Positions 25,240-47,728 of a stretch of 64,000 bases of DNA are shown here, piece after piece. The notes under the pieces were generated by a model. It did not search any database, was not told the DNA's origin, and worked only from the letters and a program-made list of their open reading frames with translations. The stretch is from Tetmemena sp. SeJ-2015. Taxonomy: Eukaryota > Ciliophora > Spirotrichea > Sporadotrichida > Oxytrichidae. The stretch's first letter is position 1, and each line of letters opens with the position of its first letter. The stretch covers positions 1 to 64,000 of the forward strand of contig JAJKFJ010021650.1 in assembly GCA_027382625.1 (NCBI GenBank), given 5' to 3'. Both the position numbers and the translations under genes were made by a program.

Positions 25240-26973
25240 AGCAGTCCTTAGCCGAAAAATATAATTTATTGATTTATTATTATCCTTTAATTCGAAAGCT
25301 CAAAGACTCCAAAGCCTATAATTGAGGGGGGAGTTTTCCTATTTACAGATTAGTAGCAAGAAGTAACAAATAACAACACTAAGAAAGTGAAGAAAGAAAC
25401 AAAGACTATAGCTTAGAAAAACAACTCTAAGAATTAATTAATTTTTACCCTATTATTGGACCTTGTAACAAAACAAAGGAGATTAGCGATGTGGTTATGG
25501 ATACTTAAACAAGTAAGAACTAATATAAGCATAAGCCAAAATAGCAAGAGAGAACAGGCAATAAACAGGGAATCGCTCAAGATTCACATTTGCTTATAAT
25601 CAAATATGCACATTTATTTTCCCTATAAAATTTATTAATTTTGTCATTCTATAAATCCTCAAAACCACTAAGAAAGTATACACAAAAAGCATACAAAAAT
25701 CAGTGAATCAAATTCATATTTTAATTAGTATAAATTTATATCTCAAAATATTTTTACTCAATAATTTTTAAATTAAAATCTTAAAATTAAATATAATTTA
25801 GCATGTTGAGGAAATTAAATTTTGATTAAGCACATATTATGAAATTTACAACATTTTGACACATGAGACATTTCTATTTTTAAAAAAGGTTCTCTTAAAC
25901 AAATAGAGTAGATTTGTAAATAATTTATATTACAATAACACTTTCAAATTTTGTTTAAATGAACATAGGAAATCTAAAAAAGCAAGTGAAGAAGACTCTC
26001 TAGATGGACAAATGAAATTAAATAACTGCCTGAACAAAAATACAAATTTAGAAAATAATGAGAGTCATCACCATGAAGTCTTATGTTTGAAAAACCAGTT
26101 GTAAAATAAGTAAAGCGAAGGCTTGAGTTTGGAGAAATATCTTTAATAACAGGAGGATGAGCAGGGAAGCTAGCAAGAGCTTTGTAGTTTTGGATTAGAA
26201 GACAAAGAAAGCCAAAAGTAAAAACCGCATTCTCAGCTAATTGATTGCAGTTTTAGGAGGCACTCACACAAAGATTAATTGTCATCTCCATATTACAACT
26301 CATCAAGGAAGATTCAAAATAATATAAATAGACAATTATTTATTTTTAAAGTCTATGTTTATTAAAATAGGTTTACGAAATCCATCTAGCCAAATGAGTA
26401 AAAAGCATTCTTAATTTGCATCCTCAAAACTTCATTAAGTTAACTAAGAAAAGGAAGAAGAGGAAGCGCGCTCTCTGGTTGAGACTCCTCTGATTTAATA
26501 AATAGAGTTACTTGGAGAAGGTGTCAAAAATAATGGGGATCAAAATATTTCAAATAATGAGGAGCAGATTTAAAATATTTCATAAGACTAATAGTTGCTT
26601 GCCAATTCTTAAACAGTAATTTAAATTCAACTGTTATAAATTCTTATCATTCGTCGAGCTCAAAGTTTTTTATTTTTTGATAGTTTTGTAAAATAAATAG
26701 TCTTTGGACTTTAGCGAGAGAAACTCCAACATGGATTATTTAAAATCTAAAAAGAGAATATAAATCTCCTATCAACCTACAAGAAGTGAAAATTTGTATT
26801 TATTATCTGATTTAAACTCAAATAACCAAGAATAAACTCAGGAAAATGAATACAAAAATGGATTTATCAACCAAGTCAAGTTCGAGAATATACATTTTAA
26901 TTTTGAGATAATTTCTAATCCGATGAGTGGTATGAATAGACCTGTTCACACTCGATGTTTCAGTTATGTATGA
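25240..26973 (+). CDS. Low-complexity Asn/Gln/Ser/Lys-rich coding blocks; 3' part of the kinase gene or separate gene
   Basis: Open blocks with TAA/TAG as Gln: about 25300-25435 (SKTPKPIIEGGVFLFTDQQ, then Lys-rich), 25450-25600 (IGPCNKTKEISDVVMDTQT), 25960-26330 (DSLDGQMKLNNCLNK, EQGSQQELCSFGLEDKESQ), about 26395-26620 (KEEEEARSLVETPL) and 26700-26973 (LDFSERNSNMDYLKSKK, FENIHFNFEIISNPMSGM), ending at TGA 26971-26973. Blocks are in different frames, so IESs or introns separate them. No domain is recognised. The Ser/Thr-Pro and Asn/Gln content resembles the kinase tail just upstream, which is why it may be the same gene. No clear start codon was found. Confidence 0.5.
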
Positions 26974-27406
26974 TAACATCAAGTGAGGTAGATTTTAATT
27001 TCTATACTTACACATAAATCATTCCCAACTCGGTTCTTACTTCGTTGATGGAATGCTTATAGCAATTTAAAAACACCATTCATTAGGCAAAAGAGATATA
27101 TTTAAGCATAAAATACGCACTAACTAAAATCATTCTTGTCCTTAAAAATTAAATCACTATATCCAAATTATATTCATTAAGTAGGTTTCCTATATTACGA
27201 AAAAAGTGTATTTTAATGTTAAAATGTAAATTTTAAAAATAGAATATTAACTAGAGTAAATGTTCTACTACTAATTCTTACGCTAAATCAAAAATTTTAA
27301 AACCTCTACTTTTGTTTTCATATTGAATTTAGATATTATAACTCCGAACGGTTATTAAATTGGATAGATGAATAGGTCTTAAAATAATGAATACTACATT
27401 TTTTGA
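26974..27406. other. Convergent intergenic region
   Basis: It lies between the stop of the plus-strand block (26973) and the stop of the minus-strand WD-repeat gene (27407), so both 3' ends point into it. AT-rich; no frame is supported. 3' UTRs and polyadenylation signals would be here, but none can be pinned down. Confidence 0.5.
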
Positions 27407-29647
27407 TCACTCGGATCCTTTCTCTTCTAGGAAACTCTAGAGCACTTTGAGTTCGTTCTTTTAAATGTTTGAGAGGGAGTAGTTTAGTCTGTAAATGCGA
27501 ACGAAACTATCGTGGTAGCCAACTGCCAAGAAATCTCTCTATCTAGGATTGAAGCTTAAAGTTTGAGCCACTCGCAAAGATGTCGATACTCCATCATCTT
27601 AATAAAAATACAGCGAAGAAATAAATTTTGATTTAAGGATCTTGATTCTTGAGGACTACAGTCGGAGCGGACTTTGATTAAAGCAGATCGTAAATGAAAA
27701 CACTTCCTGAGTTTCCAACTGCAGCAAATACTGTAGGCCTGAAAGGAGAGAACTCGCAAGCCATGAGATACTCTCCAGCTCCATAGCCACCAGGCTCAAA
27801 CATAGCTACTGGTCTATTTGAAAGTGTATCGTAAAGTCTCAAAGTGCCATCAGTTGAGGCTGTCAAGAACAAACGTTTCAAAAATGGTGAGGGAGATATG
27901 GAGGTCACAGGACCCAAATGACGTTCGTAATTTGAATTGAAAGGGACTGAGAATATCATCTTCACATCTGGCTTAGCATATATAAAATGATAAATTCCTA
28001 TTACTAGATAAAGCATGATAAACTGTTGGTGCCCATACGTCCCTCTCTCCTTTGTCAAGGACGTATCTTTCTACCTTCTTCTTTACTTCTAGGATGGCTT
28101 TATTAGGTAGATTAGAAAGCAAGTTGATGGCCTCTTGCTTCCATCTGCACTAGGTCTGAGAGTCAAAGTAATGACTAATGTCTTTATCAACAGGGGGTTA
28201 GATGTTGCACTTAAAGATACTTCCTCCTTCAGTTCCTACTATGAAGGTGCTGTCCTCTTACGATCCAGAGCCAGAAGCACCGCTATAACCAATCTTAGCG
28301 AAGCTTGTTCCTCCTACTGTTCCAAGTTCTCCATCCTTTTTCCTTGCGAGGAGATGGCCCTTAGCTGGGTAACGAAGTTTATCTTAGAGACGCCAAACTA
28401 GAATTTTAGCATCTGTGGATACAGTTAGCAAAGAATAGACACAGCAAGAGAAGTGAGAGACTCGTACTTTACCCAAATTAACTTGGTGATTGACTCTCTG
28501 TGATAGATAAATAATTTCCTGATTATTAGATAGTATTCGTCAATTGCTGAAACTGCTAACTGATGTTCCTCACTATCGATATTCCAAAGATAAATTTCTC
28601 CATTTATCGTTCCACCTGCCAATATTAGAGGATCATTAGGATGATATTTATAAGCCTCTATATAAATACTACTTTTATGAAACTCGATGGTTGTTAAGCA
28701 GTTCGAGACATCTAGAGTTCTATTGGGCTTTTTGGGATCGAATTCTCTTCTGAAGATCCCCCAAGTGCTCACTGCGCTTTGATGTTCACACCACGTGGTA
28801 TGGTTAGTTTTCCCATAGGCCACAGCTAAAGTGGCTCCATTGCAACTCCATGCTATACTGACTACTTAGTAATGATCACTCGACCCAGAGCCTCCTCCTC
28901 TATACCGATATTTAAGAACTTCTATCTCTAAATATGGTTATTTACCTTTACGCAGCGCCTTGATTCTCCCAGTCATCATCGTTATCATTGTTATCATTTA
29001 AAATACTTTAAATTAGTAGCTGCCTTAACCTAGTTAATGGCCTTTTGCACTGCCTTATTCGCCTCTTTGAAATCATAATTGGTTTGAATCTTCTGCCACA
29101 ACTCCACTTCTCCTCTTTCTTCCTCCCAAAATACTTCATAGTTGTCAAAAGTCTTAAAATATAATTGATGAGCTTAGCGGTGAAGTTTGAATCTAGGATT
29201 GCGCTTATTTTAGGGTAAATTTAGTTGAGCCACTTCGCAAGTGCATTCTCATCGTATGATGGAGTTGCGGAAAGTTAATTCCTTCTCTGCGCTTATCTCT
29301 AAGCCCTCTCTTCCTCATCTAAATACTCATCCTCTTCATCGTCCATATCGTCAGGCCCCACTCCCACTGAGGATGCTACTTTATCTGTTTGAACCTAATC
29401 AAATTGTCAAGATAGGTTTCAAAATTTAAACTCAGAGTAGTTTATTAGCATATAGACTTACCGAGACAGCGTTTCTTTTGAACTTAGTGTTAGTCTCTTG
29501 ATCTGCAAACAACTAGTCTTCAGTGTTCATCTCTGCCTCTTTCACTTTCCTTTTGCCCATGCTTGTGCCTTAGCCTGCCCCATGTGGTCTAATGGAACTT
29601 GCAGAAACAAATACCTCGTCTTGAAAATTGATTGGGTCTAGATCCAT
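27407..29647 (-). CDS. WD-repeat dynein intermediate chain, WDR34/DYNC2I2-like
   Basis: Start ATG 29647-29645 (MDLDPINFQDEVFVSASS), stop TGA 27409-27407. After a 68-nt intron comes an acidic stretch (DDMDDEEDEYLDEEERAQ), then FWEEERGEVELWQKIQTNY. WD repeats follow: ...VVSIAWSCNGATLAVAYGK, PNDPLILAGGTINGEIYLW, HRESITKLIWVKYES, SLLTVSTDAKILVWRLQDK, STFIVGTEGGSIFKCNIQ, LGPVTSISPSPFLKRLFLT, ASTDGTLRLYDTLSNRP, RPTVFAAVGNSGSVFIYDL, and a last FNPRQRDFLAVGYHDSFVRI. The VGTEGG..FKC strand and the repeat order fit WDR34, the intermediate chain of dynein-2 that drives retrograde intraflagellar transport in cilia. An axonemal intermediate chain is the alternative. At least three IESs (27, 36 and 10 bp) interrupt it. 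The start lies 85 bp from the breakpoint of the scrambled dynein heavy chain. Confidence 0.8.
28502..28528 (-). other. IES (27 bp), pointer CTATC (plus-strand GATAG)
   Basis: GATAG occurs at 28502-28506 and 28529-28533. Excision restores AIDEYYHRESITKLIWVKY in the WD gene. Confidence 0.85.
28641..28676 (-). other. IES (36 bp), pointer TCAT (plus-strand ATGA)
   Basis: ATGA occurs at 28641-28644 and 28677-28680. The insert is a multiple of three and has no stop, so an open frame runs through it, but removing it restores the compact WD strand TTIEFHPNDPLILAGG. Confidence 0.75.
28997..29006 (-). other. Micro-IES (10 bp), pointer TTTAAA
   Basis: TTTAAA occurs at 28997-29002 and 29007-29012. Removing 10 bp joins VKAATNL to NDNNDNDDDWENQG in frame; left in place the frame meets TGA at once. 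Non-pointer content is only 4 bp. Confidence 0.65.
29395..29462 (-). other. Spliceosomal intron (68 nt) in the WD-repeat gene
   Basis: On the minus strand it begins GTAAGTC and ends TTTGATTAG, is AT-rich and contains stops. Splicing joins FKRNAVS to VQTDKVASSVG in frame. No flanking direct repeat is needed, which separates it from the IESs. Confidence 0.85.
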
Positions 29648-29731
29648 TTAAATCACTCTATTTATAAATTCAATTTTTAATTTTGTTCCCCCTCACACTC
29701 TTTTTTAGTCTATCTCTTTAACTTATTAAAG

Positions 29732-29742
29732 AGATTCAGATA
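29732..29742 (-). repeat. Inverted pointer, copy 1 (dynein heavy chain breakpoint)
   Basis: On the minus strand it reads TATCTGAATCT, identical to the plus-strand sequence at 39441-39451. It marks the 3' end of the inverted N-terminal half of the dynein gene. Confidence 0.9.
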
Positions 29743-32700
29743 ATGGTGATGACGTTATGTTTGGCTTACATCTACTGGCAGCTCCTTGAGTTTAGTGCTT
29801 TCCTTGGAGACTCCTCTAAGTGCTTCTGCTAATACTTTGTAGATAGAAGTCTTTCCTCCATAGGGAGGTCCAACTAGCATCAGCCCGTGTCTGCAATTAA
29901 TCATCTCCATAAGCTGGAATACCTTTTCCCTATATAAATGTCAAAAATAAAAGAGTAATTACAAGAACGGCTTTGACTCTTGGTATACTTTAAAAAAAAT
30001 TTCCATTTATATCGTTGATAATTTGAATTTTAAATTGATAAGATTGAAATAAGGTTTAGTTGAATTCTTTCACAACTCAAATACTTTATACAAATTATAT
30101 ATAAAAACTCTTCTGACGTGGGTATCCAGATCTCCATACTGAGTTTCGGGCATAGATACTCCTTGGAACAAGTCTTCAGTTATTCCCTTGAATAGAGGCA
30201 AGTCCTGGGACAAGAACTTTGGCTGGTTCACGTCATTTGGTAAAAATAATAACTATTGCCAATGAGGATTAAAATAAATACTGATTGATGGATCTGAGAA
30301 TAAGAATGTCTTCCCTCTCCTTGGCATACTTCTATTTGAGCATCTTAGCAGCTGTAAGAACTGCCTTCACTGCTCTCATTCCATAGTCGTAGTGGTGCTG
30401 GGAACTCAGCTGTTCTGAGCACAGTCTGTATGTTGCTACGATTTTCTTCGCAAGGTTTCTGCTCTCAAAGAATCCAAAAGAGTACAAAGATATCTCAGCA
30501 ATCATTCATTTAGCAGATCCTTTTCTTCTAAATTTAATGATCATAGTGTATCAGGCATCATCATAGCCACAGGCCTAAAGAGAGCTTTCAAGTTATCTGG
30601 GAGTTCAGATCTACCAGCATACCCTGGATTCATGGTTATGAAAATGTTGCAGGAGGGTTTCAGATTGATGTCCGCATCTTCAAAGAAGAAAATTTCCTTC
30701 TGCTAATTCTTCGCCCTTTAAATTTCCCATTAACATATTGTAATATTGCAACTTATTATTTCCAAGATTTGCTGAGCAACCACACTAAGCACTTCCAACT
30801 CTATCCTGTTGAACTCATCGAAGCAAGACCAAGAGCCAGCACTAGCTAAACCCTTGAAAAACTTTGCCATAGCTTTGGCGTTAAGTCCTTCAGCACAGTT
30901 GAAAACCATGCAATGGATGGCGATAGCTTTAGCAAGATCTTTGGTGGACTCAGTCTTTCCGGTTCCAGCAGGCCCCTCTGGAGCTCCACCAAGATTTAGA
31001 TGTAAAGCAGACATGAGTGTTCTGTAGCATCTGTCTGTCAAGGGAGTGATGACAAGACGAGTGGTGTTTCCAAGATATTCATACCCATAATCCTAGGTAG
31101 TGGTGATCATCTTAGCTACCACATGCTTATGGCTTGCTGGAAGTAATACCTCAACTGTGCTAGCCAAGAGAAGTCGTCTAGACTATTGACTCCCTCTGCT
31201 ATTAAACTTTGAAGAGTGTCTTTCGCATGCAAGTCTATCACAATCAGCGATCCCAATGTCATTCTCATCAAATCAGGCAACTCATTTCTAACTAGGTTAA
31301 CTATCTCATCCAGCTGCTGTTGGCATTTCTTGAAATACTGTTCCATAATTTAATTCATAATATTCTTAAATGATGCTAGCTTTATTTTCCATTGCTTTGG
31401 AGGCAGAGCCTGAATTTCCTCCACTACTTTACTTAAGAGCATCTTCTATCGCTCTGGTCCACATTATTTAGCTCACAGCAAGCACTACCTGACTTTGCCA
31501 ATTACTGATCCATCTTTCTCTAAAATTTATATCATACACATCAAAATATATCTCTGGTGGTATTAGCATTTCTGTTATAGTCACTAATGCTCTCTGCAAT
31601 TACCTGCTGAACTGAAAGCTTCATATTTGTTTCAAGTTCTAAGAGCCACACCTCAACGTTGCCTTTGTGTTCTTGAGGGAATATAGACTTTACAAGCTCC
31701 ACTCGTTCGTGCTCTCTGCTCACTATAGCTATTATCTCCTCGTTTTATTCTTCCTCATTCATATTTGCTTCACTCTCATTAAACAAAAATATGATCACTT
31801 ACAATTTACCTATGTCCTCTCATCATGAGCTCTTTTATTATCTGCTGTTTTAAGAGTGCCTGCCTTGAAAACCACCTCATTTATTCCCTCGAAGCATTTT
31901 TTTAGATGTCTCTGCACTTTGAAAGGGTTCTTTGAGTCTCCCAAAATTTCAAGCAAGTCCTCATTTGACAGGAAGTAGAAGCGAGGGAAGTATTAGCGCT
32001 TGGTCTCGAGATAATCATTCAAACTCTTCTGAATTCTATCAAGGGCTGAGTTGGCATCGTCTAAGTTAGTTTGCAATCCTTTTATCTTATTCAAGTGGAG
32101 AACGAGGGTGTCTTGCTGCACTCTCATCATGACATCTCTCCACATCTTGTCTATCTTTGTGAACTCTCTTGCCTCTAATGGAAGCTTTTTCGTAATGTCC
32201 TCAGAGTGGAAGATGGGTTCTAAGTACAGGTAATTTTAATATTATCCTAATAAAAATGGTAATTAGCTTGGACTCTGATCCAGACATCCAATACTTCTTA
32301 AAGGAAGGTCATAAGTCTCTCCCAAGCAATTGCCCTCTCTTACATTGGAGCAACATCTGGAGATCCTCTTATTGTCTAAGAGGTAAGGGTGTGCTCGTCC
32401 AATATGATCAAAATACATATTGCTATTTATATGAGCTGAATCTCTTCAACGTTTAGTCCTTGGAGAATAGGGATGCCAGTGTCTCTGAAAGTAGTCAACT
32501 CAAATCTCAAGTCCACCCACTCAATCTCCATCTTATCCAGCATCTTTTCAAGTCTAGCTTCCTTCTTTGCCTTCTCACTTATCTATATAATGAATGATGG
32601 TTTAATTATCTCTGCGAGTTGATCTAGGTAGTCCTTGACGTTGAAGTACTTGACTTCTGAAAGCGATATCTTCTGGTAGTTAAAGTTAGCTTTTGCTATC

Positions 32701-35700
32701 TGCTAGATCTCGGTCCAGTGCCTTGTCTTGAGTGAAGGGTTACAGAGAACCTCAATAGTTGGCAGCCACTCATTCAATTCACTCACCTCTCCTGATAGCG
32801 AGTTTATCACTTTCTAGGCAAGCTGGTTATCTTTGAGACTCTTCTGCAGTTTCATGAGAGTCTTGATCGACTGCTTAATCATACCGTCAACTTCATCTGG
32901 GTCGATATTAAATAGAATGTATTAGCGAGGGCACTCTCCATCCACTGACGCTTCTTTATTATGATCTCTGATACGTTGGTCCACAATTCGTAAAAAGGAG
33001 AGTAGAACTTCTTTACTCTGTGGAAGGACTCGAAGTTGCTCTTAAACCCAAATAGCATCATCTCCTCGGAGGAGATTTCAAGCATCTGCTCCTCAAATGC
33101 ATCTATCTGCTGCTGGTAGTCAAGAATCTTGTTAATCACTATCCTGTAACTAGCCAGGTCACCCCATTCAAATCTAAAATATACTATTTGCTCATAAATA
33201 AATACATTTAATAATTGCATGACTTCTTTGATATTCTCTTCCAGGAGAGCGACTTGAGTTTCAAATAAACTCAAGTCAATATTTAGAATATTTTATAAAT
33301 GCATTGCTTTAGATTATGTCTCTCTTCTTGACTACGAAGTTCTCGATGTCGTTTCTCTCATTCCTGTGCCTATCATCTGCAGCATCCATATGTGCATTAA
33401 GTTTGCTCGGCCATTCATGCAACTCTTTCACCAAAGCCCACTCTCATCCTCAAACATCTTGTCATTCTAATATACACATGATTGCATATATTTATCACAA
33501 ATTCCTAAGAAGGAAGAACATGGATCGTCTGTTTTCATACATCCTCTCTTGTAAAGCTCCCATTTCCAGTAGTAAGTTGTTTTTATAGCGCTCCATTTCA
33601 ACTACATCCTGAGGGGTCTTAAGTTGCTTGTCGAGGTACCTGCAAATCTAAATATACTTCTCACAGATGCTTTGAGACCTGCTCACCATTAGAGTTTCAA
33701 ACTTCCTTAAAACCTAAGCTAGTAGTGTCCTCAGTCTTCTCTAGATCTCATCCTTGATAGCTCCAGTTCCCACTTCAAACATAGGGAAGAACACTATGGT
33801 CGGCAGCTGGGTGGAGAGACGCTGATAAAACTTAAGCTCCTTAATCAGCAGTTCGAAATCTTTATCTCTTCTCTCGTTCTCAGCAATGAAGTTCTTAACT
33901 CGCTATTGTAAAGATCCCTTAAGTATTTCCTTAAATTGGTCAAATATCTCAACCACTCTCTTTGTCTCTCTGAGATGTCTGTTTATTATCTTCTTGATTT
34001 GATGCTTCACTTTGATGTAGCAGTCCTCTCCTTCAGCGTCAGCTATTTGATAATACTTCTCTACATAGGGTCTTGAATAGATACCCATCATAACTTAACA
34101 CTAATCCTAATATATATACTCCCATGTTGTTCTCATCTATAAGGTCTTTTGTATTCTTCTCTGACTCAAATATTTGGATCCTACCTAGGAACTTCTTGTA
34201 AACCTATTCCCCATCTTCATGATAGTTGTATAGGATAGAATCGAAGTCTTTGATTTTAGGAGTGGCTACTCCGAAGTGACTTGCGGTAACTTGCGTTTAA
34301 TTGGCACTATTCTAAGCCATAGCTCCTTGAGCTTGATTTGAGTTGGGAGTGAGCACGTTAAAGCTTTACTACTGCCTTGCGTTCTCAGGGTGGTTTTAGC
34401 TTCTCATCGTGCTCTAGCTGAGTGCGTTGATTGGCTTCTTCACTTGCACATTAATATGAAATGATAAATTAATAGGAGATGCACATTAAGCTTCTTAAGC
34501 CTGGCCTCTTCTTCTAAATCTCCTTCATAGCGTTTTTTGGAGAATCACTTTAACTTTAGCAAATTCAGGTCTCACCAAAAGCTGGTTGAAGCTAGTGACT
34601 GTCCGCAGGAACCACATCTCAAACTCTAAATAACCAATTTATTTACTTCCACTCTTCGATTATGTCTTGCTCTCGCTTTGTAAATTCTAAGGCATCTCCA
34701 TTGGCCAAGTTAGAGCTAAAGAATGCTCCTCCTGCTGTTTGATTGGGGGAAGGACTAGGCTGCAGAAGATTTGAACTGCTAGCCATTTCATTTTATCTTA
34801 ATCCACTGTAAACATAATTTTAACAAATACAAAGCAATTGAAACAAGAGTGAGGTCTAGTCTAAAGACTGGATTGACATAGTCTTAGAAGTCAAAGAAGT
34901 CTGGGAGCTACAAAATTGGATCCTCATCCCATTTGGTATCCATCTTAGGTTTTGTTTCAAACTCTCTGACTTCCTGGGTCTTAGAGGGTGGTTAATTACT
35001 CTTCTTGGCAGTTCCTCTTCTTGGGGCCCCTCCTTTTTGCTGTTATTATTTCTGCTCTTCTTCTTTCTTGCGTTTGGCTTCTGCTTCTTGCAGCATTTAC
35101 TCAGCGCTATTTATCTTGTCTTGCCTTGTGACAAATATCCTTATCTGCCTCATAGGTTTTCCTCCCATAGCCTTTTTTATGTGCTCAAATGTTAGGAAAC
35201 CAGTAAAGAAGTTCTAAATCGTTGATACAGATTTATCTACAATCTCTCTGAGGTGGAGCCTCATGAGGTTGCCAGCTGCGTATTTAATTTCTCGCTTATA
35301 TTGCTTTGACAAGATCTCATACCCATTCTCCTCAAAGTTCACATAACCCTTTATGAGTTCGACGAAAGCGAGATAGGCAGAGTTCTCTCTAATGTCAACT
35401 AAGTCTTCCAAGTCTAAATCTGCTCGGTACTGAGGAGGGATTGAAGTAAATGAGAAGCCTTCTTCTGTTTGGAAATAGGTTAGAGGTACATTTTGATGAA
35501 CCATGCCGTTCTAGAGTAGTATTTCAAGAGCTGATGCTGCTTTCCTAAAACTGATTACAAATCAAATCTCTCAATCTCTTCCCATTTTATATCGCTATAA
35601 TTAATTCTTAGATGAATTTAATGCTTGTGTAGCCTCTCTATTCTCCATCTTCGCTCTCAAAAATATACGTTTAAATAAAATTGCAATCTCTGATGGAATT

Positions 35701-38700
35701 GGATTGTATCCTTCAAAGTTCCATTTGCCTAAACTTGCCTTGCCACTGGCATTTTAGATTTACTGTTGCTGCTCTCTCAGTCTCATAATTTTGAACTTCT
35801 TAATGATAAGGATGCAGCCTCTGTGCCAAATGTGCTTCATAACTTGAAGAACCTTTTATCTGTAAGCCTCTTGCAGGCTGATGAAATTGTCTATGTCCAT
35901 TGAGTAGCACTGCTGTGAAGAAGAAGACCTTTAGGCAGCACTGTTATATTGGCTTTAATTATGGGGTGCAGCCCTCTGATCTGTCTGATTAAATTAATGT
36001 AAGAAGATTATGGTGAGAGGAGGACTGGTGATGCTAAAGACGACTGCTTTGATGGCGGGACATGTTTGGGTTATATGTACTGGTGGCTTGATGAGGGTCT
36101 TATTAGATGTCTACGAATTGAGCGAGACCCTTGAACTCAACCAAGTTGAACGATCTGAAATCCTTAAACCAACTCTGTAGAGCTGAGATTACTATGCTTT
36201 AATAATATAATAAAGCATTAAAAGTTCGACTATGTTGTTATTGAGGAGTCTGAGCTTTGATTTCGCTCTCCACCTCTAACTTTCTCTCGTGGCTACTCTT
36301 GTACTTCTCTAAGTCATATCCTCCTCGCATGAGTTATCTATCTGTGGCGGAAGGAATAGGTCTTGGAAGCATAACAATGTGCAGCCTTTTTCTTTCTTCT
36401 GGGGATCTCAGAATGTACTCAAGAATGGCTTGTTTGATTGCTCTTGCATAGAAGTTGAACACCTCAGAGAATAATTTCCTCACTAGGCTTGAATGAGCTG
36501 ACAATAAAAAGTTAAATAGAGAGTCAGGTACTAAGTCGAGTGCGTGCGACATCCACTCCTTCTTGTATTTACTAATCTCCTCGTTTTTAATGGCGTCTGG
36601 TGACTCTAAGTACTTTAGATAAATAAATAATCTTAAGAATATAAACTTGAAGAACCTGTGAATGCTAAGCTACACTTGATTCTTAATATAATAAGTGATT
36701 CATAAGAGTTTCAGACCAGACTTGCTAATACTGAAATGCTCCTTCAAATCTAGTTTAGGTCTAGTCAAATACCTTGCCTTCACCTGCTTCCTTTGCTGAT
36801 TCCAATAATTCAATTAAGAATTTATGAATTATTCCAAGTTAGGTGAGGGATCTCTTTGATTGTTGTTTCCGGCCCCAATTTGAGTAAGTCTGGGGTTGTC
36901 TTCCTCTGGCATAACTCCGATGAAAAGACTGTTATCTTCATAGTCCTTCTAGGCCTGCTCTGGCTCATTGATCTCTTCATCACTTGGCTTTATAGGTTTC
37001 TTGATGTCCTCATGTATGCTATCAAGTCAATCACATATCAAATACTAAGAATTGTTAATACTAATGGATAGATTAGAATGAGATGCTTCTTCTTGAGTCT
37101 GGCTGAGAAGTCCATGTACGAACCAATCCTCTGCACTGGAGTGTAGTAACTCAGGTCTCCATACCTTGCAAAAGTAGCTGCAAATGTTCTTTCAGATCTG
37201 TCGAATAACTCAGGGAAGGGCAAGTCGAAGTTCTTTTCCTTCTTGTAAGCAGTGGTAGGTCGTGAGTTCATAATTCTGTGGGAAAATGACTCAGGCTCTA
37301 ATAAAAACATTCTACAATTAAGAGCAGCTCAGGTTTCACATCAAATTTGTCCTCTCGGTACTTCGTAGATAAACTATATCCTAAAAGTTTAAGATATTGA
37401 GGTCGACATATTGATCACCATATTCCTCATCCTCCTCATCGTCGTCGTTTATACTTTCAAACAAATAAATTATTAAACTACTCGGTTCCTCATTCTTTTG
37501 ATTAGTTTGCTCACCCATTTTAACCATAGCACTAAAAGGCCTTTGGAAGCCGGCAAGCTGCATATACTTTGGATTGGCTGAAAACGGGCGTCTGCCTGCG
37601 CCTCCTTTGCCAGAAGAAATCTTAAACTCTTTTTAAAGCTTCTGTAATCCTCCAAGGGGAGGCACTTTAGTTTAGAATGGGTTAAGAAGCTTCATGGACT
37701 TAGTTTATTGAGGCAGGAGACTAGAAATAGGACGCTGTCTTTAGTCAGAAGGACCAGTTGGAGGTAAATTCAAAGCTCCTTGGAGAGTCTATTTTAATCC
37801 TACTATTCCAAAATATTAATATATTAAGTTATCAAAATATAATCCAACTTGTATGCTGCCTTTTTAAGATCTCATTAAATTAATAAAGATTAATAGCAAT
37901 TAAATCTGAAAGTGCTTTGAGGTCTTTGAAGAGCCGAAGTTGCTCTCTAAGCCTTACGCTTCTCTCTAATATCGAACTAGTGCTTGTCCACGTTCAAGTC
38001 TGTGAAAATAGTAATCTGCCCCACTTTAGTCGTGTCATCCTAATCAATTGTCATGGTTAGGCCAGCTGGTTTTTAACTTAACAACTCCTGCACATTTTTA
38101 GACTAATTAAAAGTCACGAATTCAGCAGCTGTAGAATCGCCAACTGCAGATGGCCCTTCCTTAATAGACTAGTTTTATATCGTTTGCAGTTGATTCCTCT
38201 ACAGACTCTTCTAATTCTTAAGTAGGTTTTTGTCAATCCTTGTTGTGAACTTGCTCTATGAAGTTTCTTTCCCTCCAAGATTTGCTAAGAACTAAAATGG
38301 TCTTTAGAATTGATCGAGCTCCTGCTTCCCAAAGAGCCCTGTGCCTCCCATCGCTAGAGGTGTCTAATTATTACTGATTGTCGATCTCATTAAGTCTTTG
38401 TCACTTGCTACAGAGTTTAAACCTTGCAACAGACTCGGTCCTTCTTAGTTACGCTAGGATTGGCCAAAGCTTGCTCCTACCATCGGCTGCTAAGCTTGCC
38501 TCATACTGCTCATCACAGGTACTCGAACGTTCTGAGCTCCCATTGAACTTTCAAAAGCTCCACTTATTTGAGTTCCTCCAAACTAAGAATTCAAACCTCT
38601 TGAGGAAAGCAGTTTCTACTCTATGAATCTTTTCTCAGTGTTTATGTGATTGGATATTTGGTTCCAGTATTCTAAAATGTAAAACCTTTTGATATAGATA

Positions 38701-39285
38701 GAGTATATTTTAGAGCTTTAAACTATATTTGCCAGAAATATCAGCCACCTAATTAGCTTAAGAAGGAGGTTGAGCAATTCTGAACCTATTGTTCTAATTT
38801 TGAAAGGGTTTCTCATTATACTGAGTAGATGCTGATTGCTCAGATTCTATTGTCGAATTCCTAAATTGGTTCTGCAGGTTGCTTGTAGGTGGCAAAGTTT
38901 ATCGAAGTTGGCTTGAAGATCTGAAACTCTATCCGGGTTGTTACTAATTGCCTTGGAGATTTTAAACTCTGCTCTTACTGGAGAGAGTGGCTTAAGGTTG
39001 CTGACGACTCACTCCGCTTTGGCCTCTTGGCAAGGGCATTTATTAGATTTACTACTGCTTACTAGCCATATCTGGTGTGACTGTATAACTGGCCAAGCCT
39101 TCATTCTTCTATCCACTCTAATACTTAAAGTATAATACTACTAACTCATCTGAGATCTGTTAGTGCTTTCTTTTCTTTGCTTGCTGTTTTTTCTTATAGA
39201 AGACTGAGCTCTTTTTCTAATTCCATCTCTGGTATGCTAACTTTACTCTTAGTTCATTCTCTAAAGACTTATTTAATCAATTGGG
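29743..39285 (-). CDS. Axonemal dynein heavy chain, N-terminal half (inverted): tail, AAA1, start of AAA2
   Basis: Read right to left. A Gln/Ser/Asn-rich N-terminal region (39285 to about 37870: [51 protein letters not shown]), then [19 protein letters not shown], a tail with [18 protein letters not shown] (36.4 kb) and [20 protein letters not shown] (35.7 kb), [19 protein letters not shown] (35.3 kb), linker, then AAA1: P-loop [11 protein letters not shown] (about 30955) and Walker [15 protein letters not shown] (about 30790). It ends after the AAA2 P-loop, [16 protein letters not shown]...[15 protein letters not shown] (about 29850-29940). Sequence at AAA1 fits single-headed inner-arm axonemal dyneins (DNAH1/3/7/12 group; inference), ATP-driven motors on doublet microtubules. 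Numerous short IESs and introns break the frame. The start codon is not identified. Attribution of the 37.9-39.3 kb blocks to this gene rests on the absence of an intervening stop and start. Confidence 0.8.
37299..37318 (-). other. IES (20 bp), pointer TTA (plus-strand TAA)
   Basis: TAA occurs at 37299-37301 and 37319-37321. Excision joins [11 protein letters not shown] to [14 protein letters not shown] in frame. The 3-bp pointer alone is weak evidence; the restored frame is the support. Confidence 0.6.
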
Positions 39286-39440
39286 CCAATTCTCAAATGA
39301 AATAGAATGGAAAAAGTGTACTTTATTGTTGTAGGTTAAGTAACTTACTCTACAGTTTTCGCTCTATTTATCTTACCTTATAATTATAAATATATTTAAA
39401 TTTAAATTTCATTTACTCAGATCCAACCCCTACTATCTTC
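39286..39440. promoter_or_regulatory. Short gap between the two dynein halves; probable 5' flank of the N-terminal half
   Basis: AT-rich sequence of about 155 bp between the 5'-most minus-strand coding and the plus-strand pointer. It should hold the promoter/5' UTR or a missing first block of the heavy chain. No specific motif is identified. Confidence 0.35.
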
Positions 39441-39451
39441 TATCTGAATCT
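39441..39451 (+). repeat. Inverted pointer, copy 2 (dynein heavy chain breakpoint)
   Basis: TATCTGAATCT, the same 11 bp found on the minus strand at 29742-29732. Joining here completes an intron: GTAAGC donor at 29769 (minus) to TTTATAG acceptor ending at 39491 (plus), 78 nt in all. Confidence 0.9.
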
Positions 39452-42400
39452 TTCATTCATTTCCTTATCTTAAAAACCAATTACTTTATAGACTTATGTG
39501 ATCAACCCCAAAAGTATAACTCTGAGTCAGCTGTATGGATCATTCGACCCGATATCTCAGGATTTCACAGATGGAATCCTCGGCCAACTGTTTAGGCGCT
39601 GTGCTTACAAAGATGTAGGGAAGAGTAGGAGATGGCTAGTTTTCGATGGACCTGTAGACGCAGAGTGGATTGAAAATATGAACACAGTCTTAGATGATAA
39701 CAAAAAGCTCTGTCTCCTCAATGGAGAAGTCATAGCAATGAATGACTAGATGAACTTAATCTTCGAAACTCATGATCTCTCCTAAGCCTCACCTGCAACC
39801 GTCTCTCGATGTGGAATGGTTTATATGCAGCCTGAAAATGTAGGTTGGTAAGCACTGCTTGCAAGTTGGCTAGAGTAACTCAAGCACAAAACTTCAGGTA
39901 GCTAGGGTGAAAGCTTTGATCCCTCTCTCGTAAGAAGGATAGAAGACCTATTCGAGATTTTCTTTTGCCAAAGTTATACTTTCTTGAGAAAGAAGTGCAC
40001 TACATATGTTCCCGTGTCTGAGATTCATCTTGCTCACTCCCTAATGAAAATATATCAGTCACTTCTTGTGCAACCATAGTTCTTAGATATGGCCTACAAC
40101 CCCAAAATAAAGAATGAGGATGTTGTGAACCGCATTATTTAATATCAATATTTTATTCATTGACATGTACTTCCTGTTCTCTCTAGTGTGGTCAGTTGGC
40201 GCAGTGAGTGATGAAGCAGGCCAGAGAAACTTCTCTTACTTCTTGAGGAAGATCTGCACTGATGTTTACAAAATGAGGCAAAATAAAGTCACTCAAGGTT
40301 GACAAGCTAGCCTAAATCCCAGATGGAGGAAGCATAGTCCAAAACTATTTCTTGGAAGAGTAGAGATGGGTCTGCTGGAAAGATGTGCTAGATAAGAATG
40401 ACTCTAACAATCACTGTAAATTAAAATTTAGTCTCTATATAACAAAGAGTTCGACCCTTCACTGACCTATCATGAGTTGATTGTTCCAACTACAGAAAAC
40501 CTGAAGAACACATTTTTACTAAATCTGTGCATCAAGAATGGAATACCTACTAACTTCGTAGGTCCGACTGGAACTGGAAAATCTGTACTTGTCCAAAAAT
40601 ATTTAAGGTAGCTTCCATTCGACAACTACACTACAATCCAGATATGCTTTAGTGCAAAAACTACTGCCAATCAAGCTTAAGAAATAATTGATTCAAAGCT
40701 AGAGAAGAGAGGTAGAAGAATCATGGGACCTCCTTTAGGTAAAAAATGCGTGATCTTTGTCGATGATCTAAACATGCCATAGCTAGAAAAGTATGGGGCA
40801 CAGCCTCCAATTGAACTTCTCAGGTAGTGGATGGATCACAAAGGGTGGTATGATAATAAAGAGAAAGAAAAGACTTTCAAGGAGTTGATAGACCTGATCT
40901 TCGTTACAGCTATGGGTCCTCCAGGAGGTGGAAAGAATCCAATTACTCCAAGATATCTCAGGCATTTCAACTTAGTGTCCATAAATAACTTTGATGAATC
41001 TGTGTTGCAAAGAATATTCTCCAAGTTGATGGATTGGCATTTAAGAAAATCTAACTTTTCCCCAACATCAGATGCCTTCCGTACTCTTCAAGCTATCGTG
41101 GCTGGTGCAGTTGATGTTTTCCTATTCGCATAATAGGAGCTGAGACCCACCCCAACCAAGTCTCACTATTTGTTCAATCTTAGGGATCTGAGTAGAGTAA
41201 TTCAAGGAATTTAACTGGGAAGGAAGGAAGACTTCACTGACTCTAAAAAGGTACTTAGATTGTGGGTACACGAAGTAGCAAGAGTTTTCTCAGACAGACT
41301 GATAAACGAGGAGGATCAAACTAAACTCTTTGAGAGATTATTTATCTCTAGCAGAGAAAAGGTCAAAGAAGACTTGATCACAGCACTTAAATTCTATAAA
41401 TAAATGATTTTAAACTATTCTAGTTCGGAGAAATGGGTATTAAAGTAGAAAACAACAAAGAAATTATGACAAGATACTTGATGTTCGGTGATTAAGATTA
41501 TTATAATAAATAAAGCTCTTAACTGACAAGATTATAAACTTCCTTGAAGACTTTAACTCTTTATACCGTTAAATAAATACCTACCTTGAACTTAGTGTTG
41601 TTTGACTTTGCTGTGATGCACATTTTAAGAATCTGTAGAGTCCTTCGTATGTCTAATGGCAACGCTTTCTTAATCGGAGTTGGTGGCTCAGGAAGGTAAA
41701 GTTTATCTAAACTAGCTACTTACATTTGCGACTATGGACTTGTGGAAATTGAGCAATCTAAGAATTATAATGTGGACTAATGGAAGGAGGACATGAAAGA
41801 AGCATAAATTATAGTCTTACTTGCAGGCTAAGATTGCAAAAACTCAGGTTATAAATTATTATAATCAAGTTCTCATTCATGCTAGAAGACATAATTAAGA
41901 TAGCAAAATTACTAAAGCTAAGACCAGTAGCCAAAAGAGAATAGTACTTTCCTTTTGAGTTCTAGGATTATTTTGTAGAAAAGACAAAGTAGCATCTTCA
42001 CATTATTCTTGCCATGAGTCCCATAGGAAATGCGCTGAGAGAAAAATAAAAATTAAATTTAGTTAATTGTTAAACTTTCATGGTTTTTTTGGAAAAGGGA
42101 GTTTAAAGGGTTTTTACAATTTTTAAAAATTTTTAAATAAAACCTTCTAAATATCAAACTCTGCAAGAAAATTCACACAACATAATTGGAATGATTGCTC
42201 TCAGCTCAAAGTACCTCACTGAATAAAAGAGATACAATTATGTTACCCCAAATATTTATCTGGAGCTGATTTTAACTTACAAGGAACTTGTAAAAAAGAC
42301 AAGGCAGAAGACGCTGACTTTGAAATTAGGATATGACAAGGGTATTGAAAAATTACTTTTTACTGCTGAGGAAGTGACTAAGATGCAGTAAGACTTGAAT

Positions 42401-45400
42401 GAGAAGCAGCCTCGACTTGCTCAAATGACTGTTGAAACTGATATACTTATGGAAAAGATATAAAAGGAATCTAAGGAAGTAGTAGAACCCAAGAAAGCTC
42501 AAATTCAAGAGGAGGAAGCCATTGCAAACTAAATGGCTTAGGAGGCACAGACAATTAAAATTGAATGCGAGAATGACCTTTCTAAAGTTCTTTTAAAGCT
42601 CTTCCTCTCGTGAAAAAGGCCTAAGAGGCGCTGAACACAATTTAATCATCTCATATCAATGAAGTCAAAAGTCTTGGTAAACCACCCGAGCCTATTAAGA
42701 AAGTTCTTCACGCTGTATGTATCATGTGCCAGAGAAAAGGGTTGAGAAAAAAAATCCTATTTTAAGAAGGAAAATCCTAAGGAACTTGAAGAGAACTGGT
42801 GGTATACGGCACAGAAGTTTATGAGTGAAAAGAATTTCCTTGATTCTTTACTAGAATATGATAAGGACAATATACCTGAAAATGTTATGAATAAGATCAG
42901 AACTAACTTCTTGAGTTAAATTTTTAAAGATATTAGAGTGACCCTGATTTTAAGCCCTAGAGAGTTGAGAAGGCTTCATTTGCTGCTAAGGGGTTATGCA
43001 TGTGGATAAGAGCACTGGATCAATATGATAGAGTTGCTAAGATTATTGCTCCAAAGCGTCTAAGAGCAAAAGAAGCTGAAGCAAAGTATAAAGAGACTCT
43101 AAATGGACTTAGGAAAAAGCAAGCTGAACTTAAATTGTTAATTTAAATTTTATGATTACTTAAAGAGATAGTAGATCAATTCGAACTTCTCTAAGCTTAA
43201 CTGGATGAAACATCAAGAAGAAAGAAGAGATTATAAGATGATATTGAGGACTGCAGCAGGAAGCTAGATAGAGCTCAAACTTTAATTGTAGGATTAGGAG
43301 GAGAACAAAAGAGATGGGAGGAAGCTACTTTAGAATTGGGAGTGCTTTATGAAAACTTAATTGGTGATATCTTATTATCCTCTTCAATTATCTCCTACCT
43401 AGGAGATTATTTAAATTATTGTTTTAGCTTTCACTAGTGTTTACAGAAACTAAGCTCTACTATCATGGACTTAGGAAATGAGAAACTTGAAAATCAATGC
43501 ATCGAATACAGCTATTTTCCAATTGCAGTAAATTTTGGGTGAGCCAGTTACAATCAGACAATGGAATATGTGTGGTCTTCCAACTGACTAGTTTTCAGTA
43601 GATAACGGTATAGTCGTCTTTAACAGTAGGAGATGGCCCTTAATGATTGATCCTTAGGGATAGGCGAATCGATGGATTAAGAGTTTAGAAGGCTCTAATC
43701 AAGCTAGTTCTGGATCCAAGCTCCAAAAAAATTACATTATGACTTCTTATAAAAAGTAGTCAGACCCTGATTTTGTGAGAGTCTTTGAGAATCTATCCAA
43801 CTTGGTTTCCCAATATTACTAGAAAATATTGGTGAAGAGCTTGATCCTCTTCTCGAGCCTTTGCTTCTTAAGTAGACTTTCAAGGCAGCTGGAATAGTTT
43901 CAATTAACTTTGGAGACAATATAATTGAGTACTCACCTGACTTTAGACTTTATATAACAACTAAGCTCCCAAATCCTCACTACCTGCCTGAGCTTTCAAC
44001 AAAAGTTACTCTCCTTAACTTCATGATAACTTTCGATGGCCTGAAAGACTACCTGCTAAACTTAGTTGTCTAAAAAGAAAATGCTGCTCTAGATGATGAA
44101 AGATAGAGACTTATAGTTCAAAGCTATGAGAATAACCGTACACTCAAGGAAATTGAGAATAAGATTTTAGATGTTTTGAGGACTAGTCAAGGCAATATAT
44201 TGGATGATGAGAAAGCCATCGATGTCCTGAAACAGAGTTAGGTTTTGAGCAAGTAAATCAAAGAGAAGCAAGAAATTGCTGCAGTGACTGAGAAGAAACT
44301 AGAGGAGGCAAGACGCTCTTACATGCCCATAGCTAACCACTCAAGTCTTCTATTCTTCATCATTCAGAAATTTTATGCTTACTAAGAAACTCAGCTAAGT
44401 TGATGTGATGTACTAGTACAGTTTAACTTGGTACATCTAATTATTCCTCATGGCCATAGACAACTCTGAGAAGTCAGAGTTCATAGAGCAACGTATTAAA
44501 TAATTCTTATTAAGGTAAACATATTTTGAGTATTGATCAACTTAAAAATTACTTCACCTTCTCTCTCTATTCAAATATCTGTAGATCCCTTTTTGAAAAG
44601 CACAAGCTTTTATTCTCATTCATTTTGACTTCCAAGCTTCGAGAATCCGAGAAAAAGATATAGCCAGCATTTAATTCTACAATTCATTTAAGCTCTGTAT
44701 GAATTTATGATATCTACCCTACCAGGATTGGAAAACCCGATAGATTTAGAGAACCCTTGTGACAGTTGGATGCCAAACTAAGTTTGGAACAGATTAGGTG
44801 AGCTATCATTAACAGAGTAATAATTCTCGTAAATTGCAACTAATTTCCACAAGAGCGAACAACAATTTAATTCTCAATTAATTCTATGATGATAAGAAAA
44901 ACAAAGGAAGAAAATCTATGACAGTAACTCTCCACACAAAGAAATATTCCCACCTATAAATAAAGAGGGATCATAATTTGATCTTTTCTCTAAGCTCTGC
45001 ATCATTAAAGTCATGAGACCTGATAAAATCGTTCCTGCCATTAAGGAGTATGTAATAGTGGAAATGGGAGAATAATTTGTGAATCCACCACTGTTTGATC
45101 TGGAACTTTCATTTAACGACTCTAGCTTCAACACTCCACTTATCTTTGTGCTACCAGGTGCAGATCCTCTCTAAAGTTTAACCGCATTTGCTACAAGCAA
45201 GAAGAAGCTAGACACTATGAAATCAATTTCACTAGGTTAGGATTAAGGACCAAAAGCAGAGAGAGCTATTGAGGAGGCTAAAAAGCATGGAGGATGGGTC
45301 TTATTGCAAAACTGTCACTTGTTTAGTTTTATAAATATAAATGTATCCATCATGGATGCCAAAGCTGGAAAGAATTTGTGAGGGCTTTGATATGAAAATA

Positions 45401-47728
45401 GGAGGTAAGGAGGTAGCTCACCCTTCTTTCAGATTATGGCTTACTTCCTATCCTTCTGCTGATTTCCCTGTCCTCATTCTACAAAATGGAATTAAAATGA
45501 CTAATGAACCACCAAAGGGATTAAAAGCAAACGTAATGGGAAGCTTTAAGAATGAGCCAATTTCAGATCCAAACTTCTTTAACATACATAATAAGCTGCC
45601 AGTGTTTAAGAAAATGCTTTTTGGACTCTGCATGTTCCATGCTATCATTTAAGAGAGGAGGAACTTTTAATAAAAATTTTATTAGTCACAATCGATTATT
45701 TGAAAGAACTACGGATCTCTTGGCTGGAACATAAGATATGAATTCACTGTATCTGATCTGAATATCTCTGTGAAATAATTACATGCTTTCACCAATGAGT
45801 ATGCTGACGTTCCTTATAAGGCTTTAAGATATCTGACTGGGGAATGTAACTATGGAGGAAGAGTCACAGATGATAGAGATAGAAGGGTGCTCAAGGCGCT
45901 TCTTTAAGACTTCTATAATCCTTAGCTATTAATTTAAAATGAATTAATCTTAGATAATGGAGGACTAATTTGCTGCTTGCAAACTAGAGGATTATTAATT
46001 CCCGATTGGAAACCTTCATCATACAAAATACTTGGAATTCATTTCTCGTCTGCCTTTAGAAGAGCCACCTTCTCTTTTTGGATTCCATCCTAATGCAAAC
46101 ATTACCAAAGAGTTATCAGAAACTTCAGAACTCTGCTATGACTTACTGAAGATGGGAGAAATAGAAGGAGTAAAGCAGTGTGCTACTGCTTATGAATAAG
46201 CTCAGAATGCATCATTAGGAAGTGCGCCTAGTGGAGGAGGCGAAAATCAGTATGCTAGTGTCTAAAGTGCAAATAGTCAGAGCTTTGCTGCTGGTGGGTC
46301 TATGCTCAAGAGACAAGCTACAAAGAAAGAATACTTCAATATTTATCTATTTTTAGATGACGCTGCTGCAAAAGTTAAAATTGAATAAGCAAAGACTCCT
46401 GAACAGTAGATTGAAAAAATTTGCAAGGATATTCTCACAAAGCTGCCTAGTAAATATTCTCAATTATTTAAAAGCAATTTAACTTTCTCGCATTTTCTTT
46501 ACTCTATTTGATATCGAGGCAGTACAAGCAAAGTATCCTTTGATAAGAGAGAATTCAATGAACACTTTCTTGGTGCAAGAGTTGACTAGATTTAATAACC
46601 TCCAAAGAGTGATATAGTCGACACTTAAAAGTATCTTACTAGCTCTTAAGTAATCATTCATTTAATTTAATAAGGGAGAGGTTTTACTATCTGAGCAACT
46701 AGAAAAGGTTTACAATTCCCTTCTGATAGGAGAGATCCCTTAAATGTGGTTAGCTCAGTCTTATCCTTCCCTTAAAAATGTAGCCTCTTACATTAAAGAT
46801 CTAGTGCTGAGGCTTAATACTTTTAACTCGTGGATTCAAAATGGTCCTTACATTTATAGTTGATTTATTTTCCTCCACCCGTGTTTTGGATTAGTGGATT
46901 CTTCTTTACTTAGTCGTTCTTGACTGGAATCTTTTAGAACTACGCTCGAAAGTATAAGATAGAGATCGATACACTTGTATACGACTTCTAATACTTAAAA
47001 GAGGAAGATCATACTGATTATGAAAGCGAAGTGTATGTTAATGAAAAAGGCAAGAGACAAATGCATAATGCACCCGAAGACGGAGCTTACATAAGTGGTC
47101 TGTACTTGGAAGGTGCAAGATGGGACAGCCATAAACAATCTTTGAATGAGTCACTTCCAAAGTTATATTAGCTTTAAACCGATTTTTAAAGGTATTATTC
47201 TGCAAAATGCCAATTATATGGCTGTAGCCAACTAAGGTTTAGAACAGACACCTAATAAGCTAATCGTCGAAAGGAGGGAGCACTCAGATGGACGAAGAGT
47301 CAATTACCTATGAGTGTCCAATGTACAAGACTGCAGAAAGAAAAGGAGTGCTTAGCACTACAGGCCACTCAACCAATTTTATAATGAATGTGAAGGTACC
47401 CACTGGAGACTACCACAGCTCTCACTGGGTCAATATAAATACAGATACATAACAAGTTAATGTAATAAATCCTGTTAAAAATCTTATTCATAACAAATCA
47501 TAATTATATCATAAGCAGTTTAATCAATTTGAGAGTTGGCAAATCAGAGCGACTCCTCTCTTGACCCAGTTCCACAAAATTAATTACAAATAACTTACTA
47601 AAAAATATTATTTTGTTATATTTATACGATATTAAGATTTATATTTATATTGGCTCGTTTCAATATCATAATATTTATATGAGAATAAAATTTAGCTTTT
47701 AAATAAATAATAGAAATAAATTAAATGA
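39452..47728 (+). CDS. Axonemal dynein heavy chain, C-terminal half: AAA2 to C-terminus
   Basis: From 39492: [20 protein letters not shown], then [20 protein letters not shown] and [18 protein letters not shown] (AAA2). AAA3 has P-loop GPTGTGKS (40563-40586), [18 protein letters not shown] and [21 protein letters not shown]4 has GVGGSGR then [20 protein letters not shown] (from 41677). The stalk coiled coil starts [19 protein letters not shown] (42385) with the microtubule-binding region near 42660-43000. AAA5 has [20 protein letters not shown] (43540) and [20 protein letters not shown]6/C-terminal part has [18 protein letters not shown] (45130), [17 protein letters not shown] across a 22-bp IES, and near the end [20 protein letters not shown] (47310) and, after a 111-bp [19 protein letters not shown]. 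The frame runs AT-rich to TGA 47726-47728; the true stop may lie earlier in an unseen block. It continues the inverted half at 29743-39285. Confidence 0.9.
40136..40148 (+). other. Micro-IES (13 bp), pointer TATTT
   Basis: TATTT occurs at 40136-40140 and 40149-40153. Removing 13 bp joins NEDVVNRII to [18 protein letters not shown] in frame, the usual dynein sequence leading to AAA3; otherwise TGA follows. Confidence 0.8.
45320..45341 (+). other. IES (22 bp), pointer TGT
   Basis: TGT occurs at 45320-45322 and 45342-45344. Excision restores [20 protein letters not shown], one of the most conserved dynein C-terminal segments. Confidence 0.9.
47426..47536 (+). other. IES (111 bp), pointer TGG
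   Basis: TGG occurs at 47426-47428 and 47537-47539. Excision joins TGDYHSSHW to [14 protein letters not shown], matching the expected HW-x-x-R C-terminal motif of axonemal dyneins. Confidence 0.7.

What the first reader, a model, noticed from the sequence alone, without database searches (positions are those of the whole stretch)
29732..39451. Dynein heavy chain gene scrambled by inversion, joined through an 11-bp inverted pointer
The minus strand (about 39285 to 29743) encodes the tail, AAA1 and the AAA2 P-loop; the plus strand (39452 on) resumes exactly where AAA2 should continue ([14 protein letters not shown]) and runs to the C-terminus. The same 11 bp, TATCTGAATCT, sits at the end of the first half (minus strand) and at the start of the second (plus strand). 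Joining there gives one continuous heavy chain. A functional gene therefore needs inversion of about 9.7 kb relative to its other half, on a very large gene.
Basis: partly seen in the sequence, partly recalled or inferred. Interest (0 to 1): 0.88.

Follow-up and report, generated by a model that had tools for sequence, protein, structure and literature searches.

The report
Twice-inverted germline dynein gene, ciliate
In the germline DNA of a ciliate, one large motor-protein (dynein) gene lies in three blocks of alternating orientation that DNA editing would have to flip and join to make a working gene; this is a new, fairly simple example of a known kind of gene scrambling.

Summary
Minus strand 39433-29732 encodes dynein tail, AAA1 and the AAA2 P-loop; plus strand from 39441 resumes in AAA2. 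TATCTGAATCT occurs in the window only at these two edges, inverted; joining there gives continuous AAA2. The gene is A(-)B(+)C(-), needing inversions of about 9.7 kb and 127 bp. A second haplotype contig, C508, carries block A, keeps the pointer, and ends in a 20-bp G4T4 telomere fused at 39433, 8 bp before block B's pointer. C508 has two precise short IESs that the window lacks. In block A the haplotypes differ at 75 synonymous and 5 nonsynonymous of 985 codons. Pointer 1 lies in a 78-nt GT..AG segment, probably an intron completed only after unscrambling. No somatic DNA was available. Scrambled dynein genes are already in print: Oxytricha's most scrambled gene is one, with 195 scrambled junctions (PMC9797194). 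New member of a known kind.

The parts
29732..39433 (-). Block A: 5' part of the dynein heavy chain gene (tail, linker, AAA1, AAA2 P-loop), interrupted by short IES-like segments; inverted relative to block B
   Evidence: haplotype C508 collinear; minus-strand coding in the tail supported by synonymous differences at 39133-38834 and, in another frame, 38383-37934
29732..29742 (-). Pointer 1, copy at the 3' end of block A (TATCTGAATCT read on minus)
   Evidence: identical in C508
39441..39451 (+). Pointer 1, copy at the 5' start of block B
39433..39434 (.). Inferred 5' telomere addition site: C508 is collinear to 39433 and then reads GGGGTTTTGGGGTTTTGGGG
39441..47433 (+). Block B: rest of AAA2 to HWV near the C-terminus, interrupted by short IES-like segments
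   Evidence: single copy in the assembly at four tested stretches
29743..29770 (-). 5' part (donor GTAAGC) of the probable intron that contains pointer 1
39452..39490 (+). 3' part (acceptor TTTATAG) of the same probable intron; with the pointer 78 nt in all
47424..47433 (+). Pointer 2, copy at the 3' end of block B (ACTGGGTCAA)
47561..47570 (-). Pointer 2, copy at the 5' start of block C
47434..47570 (-). Block C: last codons ([12 protein letters not shown], stop TGA at 47526-47524) and probable 3' untranslated end; the 3' telomere site is unknown
32806..32807 (.). Empty site of a 41-bp IES present in C508, flanked by direct repeat TCACT
33005..33006 (.). Empty site of a 38-bp IES present in C508, flanked by direct repeat AACTT
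29933..30073 (-). Interruption of about 141-156 nt in both haplotypes: IES (my reading by eye: TATATA repeats) or intron (the scan offers GTGAAA..ATATAG, 144 nt); not settled

Best explanation
This is a germline (micronuclear) locus of a spirotrich ciliate in which one axonemal dynein heavy chain gene lies in three blocks of alternating orientation: A (minus, 39433 to 29732), B (plus, 39441 to 47433), C (minus, 47570 to about 47434). During somatic nuclear development the 3' end of A is joined to the 5' end of B by recombination at the 11-bp inverted pointer TATCTGAATCT, and the 3' end of B to C at the 10-bp inverted pointer ACTGGGTCAA. One copy of each pointer is kept, the short IESs inside the blocks are removed, and telomeres are added (5' end at 39433; 3' end between 47434 and 47523). 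Inverting 29743-39440 and 47434-47560 is formally enough. Shown here: the anatomy, both repeats, coding continuity, the telomere fused at 39433 in a second contig, and purifying selection on block A. Inferred: that the joins really happen at these pointers in the soma, that RNA templates guide them as in Oxytricha (recalled; touched on in passages), and that the 78-nt segment at the first join is spliced.
For: Single 11-mer pair in the window, at the predicted edges. Dynein coordinates complementary across the strands. Profile alignment of the joined DNA, interruptions allowed, gives 3816 aa without TGA. The joined AAA2 peptide aligns end to end with solved dyneins, 208 bits to DNAH7. The C-terminal motif is on the opposite strand about 90-137 bp downstream with a 10-bp inverted repeat; the joined peptide ends in register with dynein C-termini. 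Chance controls for the repeats: 2 of 2000 for each junction. C508 continues past pointer 1 into the same left flank, not into block B, and ends in a 20-bp telomere at 39433. Two IESs with 5-bp repeats present in C508 and absent in the window. Of 42 interruptions in the conserved part, 7 to 11 have direct repeats of 5 bp or more, against control means of 0.4 to 1.3; 1 of 42 was placed as GT..AG. 75 synonymous against 5 nonsynonymous codon differences in 985 codons of block A. Blocks B and C are single-copy at the stretches tested. Another dynein locus, C2873, shows interleaved pieces.
Against: No somatic sequence of this species was seen. The A-B adjacency at 39433-39441 and the B-C arrangement rest on one contig, because no second haplotype of blocks B or C was found. 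C508 carries a telomere yet keeps germline order and IESs, so it is not a clean somatic chromosome. The window lacks two IESs that C508 has, so one or both contigs may mix germline and somatic reads. Part of block B looks poorly base-called (about 42040-42180), so some short interruptions may be errors. With exact placement 32 of 42 interruptions have a repeat shorter than 4 bp, and a permissive scan offers a GTA/GTG..AG option at 12 of the 42 (no control run for that), so some may be introns.
Confidence: 0.93

Rival explanations
1. Assembly or amplification chimaera: the germline gene is really contiguous A-B-C and the contig has false inverted joins, as whole-genome amplification can produce.
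For: The A-B adjacency and the B-C arrangement are each seen in one contig only. Inverted chimaeras with short shared words are a known amplification artefact (recalled).
Against: The second haplotype C508 also runs from block A through the pointer into the same left flank and not into B, so A is not followed by B there either. Both false joins would have to fall exactly at gene edges, and the first beside a telomere site.
Confidence: 0.04
2. Alternative fate of block A: a somatic chromosome that starts at the telomere at 39433, runs through A and continues collinearly into the left flank (as C508 reads), giving a truncated product instead of, or beside, the joined gene.
For: C508 is telomere-capped and collinear with the germline to 22927.
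Against: C508 keeps germline IESs, including two that the window lacks, so it is not a finished somatic chromosome. The one other telomere-capped contig examined, C298, likewise matches a longer contig that continues past the cap, which suggests mixed assemblies.
Confidence: 0.05
3. Dead germline copy: the inverted locus is a relic and a complete gene sits elsewhere.
For: Germline genomes keep relics (recalled); a profile for AAA1 gives 93 matches in this assembly.
Against: No other near-identical copy of block B or C at four tested stretches and only the C508 allele of block A's end; 75 synonymous against 5 nonsynonymous differences between haplotypes in block A.
Confidence: 0.02
4. Split gene joined at RNA level by trans-splicing of a divided intron, as recalled for a Giardia dynein.
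For: Pointer 1 lies in a GT..AG segment divided between the two loci.
Against: The second join lies in coding sequence with a shared 10-bp repeat and needs no intron; IESs and a G4T4 telomere point to DNA rearrangement.
Confidence: 0.01

Closest known systems
Scrambled genes of hypotrich and other spirotrich ciliates (Oxytricha, Tetmemena, Euplotes woodruffi)
   Same: Germline blocks in changed orientation, short repeats at their edges, IESs within blocks
   Different: Only two scrambled junctions found, both inversions, in a very large gene; no odd-even interleaving here
Oxytricha trifallax Contig17454.0, a scrambled dynein heavy chain gene (named in PMC9797194, passage)
   Same: Same protein family, scrambled in the germline
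   Different: 195 scrambled junctions there against two seen here; orthology not tested
Intron positions coinciding with rearrangement junctions (PMC9797194, passage)
   Same: A pointer and an intron share one place
   Different: The passage seen compares intron and pointer places between species; here the pointer lies within a probable intron of the same gene
Trans-spliced dynein heavy chain of Giardia (recalled, no paper read)
   Same: A dynein gene in separated pieces with a divided intron
   Different: Joined at RNA level; here the signs are of DNA rearrangement

Membership tests
Scrambled (unscrambling-dependent) ciliate gene | Gene segments out of order or orientation in the germline | tested here: met
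   A(-), B(+), C(-)
Scrambled (unscrambling-dependent) ciliate gene | Repeat (pointer) at the end of segment n and the start of n+1 | tested here: met
   11 bp and 10 bp, chance 2 of 2000 each
Scrambled (unscrambling-dependent) ciliate gene | Joining at pointers restores the reading frame | tested here: met
   AAA2 and C-terminus continuous
Scrambled (unscrambling-dependent) ciliate gene | IESs with short direct repeats interrupt the coding sequence in the germline | tested here: met
   Two precise IESs by haplotype comparison; excess of repeats over 42 interruptions, though most of the 42 lack a long repeat
Scrambled (unscrambling-dependent) ciliate gene | Somatic chromosome holds the segments joined, with one pointer copy | not testable with these tools
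   No somatic genome held; no joined copy in the assembly
Spirotrich ciliate with nanochromosome-type telomeres | G4T4 telomere of about 20 bp at somatic ends | tested here: met
   20-bp cap on C508 and at least 11 other contig ends; about half of the telomeres of one spirotrich are 20 bp (PMC10901763, passage)
Axonemal dynein heavy chain, single-headed inner-arm type (DNAH3/7/12-like) | Best relatives of the motor region are this subgroup | tested here: met
   Best matches among solved chains for AAA3 and AAA2 pieces; no tree was built; that these are the single-headed inner-arm type is recalled
Spliceosomal intron at junction 1 | GT..AG segment absent from the mature message | tested here: inconclusive
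   GTAAGC..TTTATAG, 78 nt, no counterpart in the 11 dyneins aligned, but in frame without stop and no RNA seen
Trans-spliced split gene | Joins within introns, no DNA rearrangement | tested here: not met
   Second join is in coding sequence

The most novel reading that the evidence does not exclude
The first unscrambling junction lies inside a spliceosomal intron that exists as a whole only after DNA rearrangement (donor on one germline strand, acceptor on the other). Imprecise DNA joining at that pointer would then be removed again at RNA level, so DNA editing and splicing act in series on one junction.
Probability: 0.5. Interest if true: 0.42.

Novelty: new member of a known kind. Interest (0 to 1): 0.33.

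Why it matters
It adds a clear, simple scrambled gene (two inversions in a dynein heavy chain of roughly 4,000 codons) from an unnamed spirotrich germline assembly, with pointers, an IES difference between haplotypes and a telomere site all visible without somatic data. Beside Oxytricha's 195-junction dynein gene it could serve as a low-complexity comparison for how scrambling grows in one gene family, if orthology holds. The probable intron at junction 1 offers a test of whether splicing shields imprecise DNA joining.

Tried and rejected
Trans-splicing was considered and set aside because the second join is in coding sequence. A second haplotype of block B or C was sought: a 9,967-base query listed 13 paralogous pieces at 66-91% identity but did not list the window's own place, so it could not show absence; three shorter queries and the joined query list the window itself at 100% and otherwise, for blocks B and C, only pieces at 71-91% or nothing. 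The protein search returned no near-identical somatic protein among the 120 listed of 2029 scored (listed identities 34% to 54%), so it gave references but no somatic proof. The wide repeat scan around interruptions was too permissive (observed mean 5.0, control 4.7); the stricter versions show the excess. The profile alignment of the tail (upstream of about 33,500) has long doubtful interruptions and is not used as evidence; the order of most tail pieces was not tested by homology. Species was not identified. Paper searches on scrambling, dynein and germline genomes (listings of 3, 6, 5 and 15 of 61 papers) showed no paper about this locus by title or abstract start, but the species is unknown, so this says little.

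Full report
What the window is. The window is bases 1-64000 of contig C2726 (81,292 bp) of a 146-Mb assembly in 5,213 contigs. Under the standard code no stop-free stretch reaches 200 codons; under code 6 (TAA and TAG read as Q) 89 do. The 20-mer GGGGTTTTGGGGTTTTGGGG matches at 67 places, overlapping ones counted, and at no fewer than 12 contigs (C508 among them) it is exactly the first or last 20 bases. Together with the IESs this points to a spirotrich ciliate germline assembly with some somatic reads mixed in. The species was not identified.

The observation. TATCTGAATCT occurs at plus 39441-39451 and reverse-complemented at 29732-29742, nowhere else in the window. Of ten dynein-region frames given to Pfam, six matched: DHC_N2 twice and AAA_6 on the minus strand, an AAA lid, AAA_7 and AAA_9 on the plus strand. 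With P0028 as query, residues 389-481 and 1232-2146 map in falling order to minus 36621-29785 and residues 2152 to 4522 to plus 39495-47431. The AAA2 P-loop (GPPYGGKT) stands near 29860 on the minus strand, and [14 protein letters not shown] is encoded on the plus strand from about 39499 (read from the sequence; translated).

Junction 1. After the join the sequence reads ...KLKELPVD, then 78 nt GTAAGC...TTTATAG holding the 11-bp repeat, then [11 protein letters not shown]. Without the 78 nt the spacing is close to that of the reference dyneins; with it there would be 26 extra residues that none of the 11 references aligned has at this place. The segment is in frame and free of TGA, so an insert cannot be excluded. 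The joined peptide without it aligns over its whole length with solved dyneins, best DNAH7 at 208 bits.

The plus strand leaves dynein after SSHWVN near 47434. The usual C-terminus was then sought by a loose pattern in all six frames; one of five matches is [16 protein letters not shown], on the minus strand at 47559; the other four do not look like dynein ends. ACTGGGTCAA stands at 47424-47433 on plus and at 47561-47570 on minus, once each. Joining there gives [20 protein letters not shown], which aligns to the last residues of solved dyneins. Blocks A, B and C thus nearly tile 29732-47570, with 7 bp between A and B.

Chance. In 2000 pairs of first-order Markov stretches of 60 nt, 2 shared a word of 11 or more; in 2000 pairs of 41 nt, 2 shared 10 or more (the observed stretches were 61 and 61, 42 and 41 nt). 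These controls are for each junction alone.

Second haplotype. The joined 358-base query found block B's start only in C2726, block A's end in C2726, and block A's end again in C508 at 98%, stopping at the pointer's end. C508 (16,626 bp) aligns in one piece to window 22927-39433 at 96.9% and then reads 20 bases of telomere. So in both contigs block A runs through the pointer into the same left flank and not into block B. The pointer is identical in both (0 of 11 differ), with 3 mismatches in the next 20 bases outside and 2 in the 28 inside; this is weak evidence of its own. In C508 a 41-bp segment between TCACT repeats and a 38-bp segment between AACTT repeats interrupt sequence that is uninterrupted in the window; these are precise IESs. 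One other telomere-capped contig, C298, was compared: a longer contig, C1815, matches it from query base 19 on and continues some 27 kb past the cap. C1815 has an internal telomere 20-mer of its own about 1.4 kb beyond that match, which I did not follow. So 2 capped contigs were examined, C508 and C298. Searches with three stretches of blocks B and C list the window at 100% and no second near-identical copy.

Interruptions. A profile alignment of the joined DNA to 12 dyneins gave 3816 aa with no TGA and 52 interruptions, junction 1 among them. In the conserved part there are 42 besides junction 1, median 32.5 nt, 74% A+T (coding 61%); 1 of 42 was placed as GT..AG although such placement was favoured. 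A permissive scan offers a GTA/GTG..AG option near 12 of the 42, so introns are not excluded there; no control was run for that. Direct repeats of 5 bp or more were found at 7 (exact placement) to 11 (placement shifted by up to 3, 6 or 9 nt) of 42, against control means of 0.4 to 1.3 and control maxima of 3 to 5. So most interruptions show no long repeat, and some in block B may be sequence errors: around 42040-42180 a conserved stretch reads like a poor base call.

Selection. Between the haplotypes, 985 comparable codons of block A below 33443 differ at 75 synonymous and 5 nonsynonymous codons (pN/pS 0.018). In the tail one minus-strand frame shows 10 synonymous and 0 nonsynonymous differences over two 150-nt blocks (39133-38834) and another 9 and 0 over three blocks (38383-37934); the remaining blocks are mixed or empty. 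Block A is therefore unlikely to be a relic. No such test was possible for block B.

Same genome, other dynein. Two stretches of C2873 (12 kb of 278,892 bp) hold dynein pieces that largely complement each other in turn. In P0028 coordinates the 258-264 kb stretch has 1507-1853, 2001-2185, 2503-2743, 3911-4148 and 4483-4532, and the 250-256 kb stretch has 1740-1913, 1922-1996, 2185-2393 and 3153-3441. Apart from an overlap at 1740-1853, where the match in the second stretch is weak (40%), they alternate, as in odd-even scrambling. Two partly overlapping genes are not excluded, and pointers there were not examined.

Known kinds. In the paper of Feng and colleagues (PMC9797194, passages) pointers are defined as here, scrambled genes need translocation or inversion, intron positions sometimes coincide with junctions, and Oxytricha's most scrambled gene is a dynein heavy chain with 195 scrambled junctions. 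A second paper (PMC10901763, abstract and passages) reports scrambling throughout the core spirotrichs. So the kind is known, the protein family is known to be scrambled, and this locus is a simple new member.

Verdict. What is missing is somatic DNA. Interest is moderate to low because the mechanism is known; the probable divided intron at junction 1 is the part most worth following.

Noticed in passing
G000 C2873:250001-256000 and 258001-264000 (L057, L058): Another dynein heavy chain locus with interleaved pieces, looking odd-even scrambled.
   Followed up: partly
window 32806 and 33005; L012: Two short IESs present in haplotype C508 and absent from the window's contig: IES polymorphism or somatic reads mixed into C2726.
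   Followed up: partly
window 42040-42180: A conserved AAA4 stretch looks garbled with long homopolymers, probably poor base calling.
   Followed up: no
G000 C508 end, C298 start and other contig ends: Contigs capped by exactly 20 bp of G4T4; the two compared are otherwise germline-like. They may mark somatic chromosome ends on the germline map.
   Followed up: partly
G000 C3316 around 48000-50300 (+) and 62300-63900 (-): Dynein-like matches on both strands in mirror arrangement, possibly a further inverted gene or an inverted duplicate.
   Followed up: no
G000 C2828:3805-4156: A longer array of G4T4 repeats in one contig.
   Followed up: no
window 27597-29072 (-): An open frame with WD40 repeats just left of block A.
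   Followed up: no
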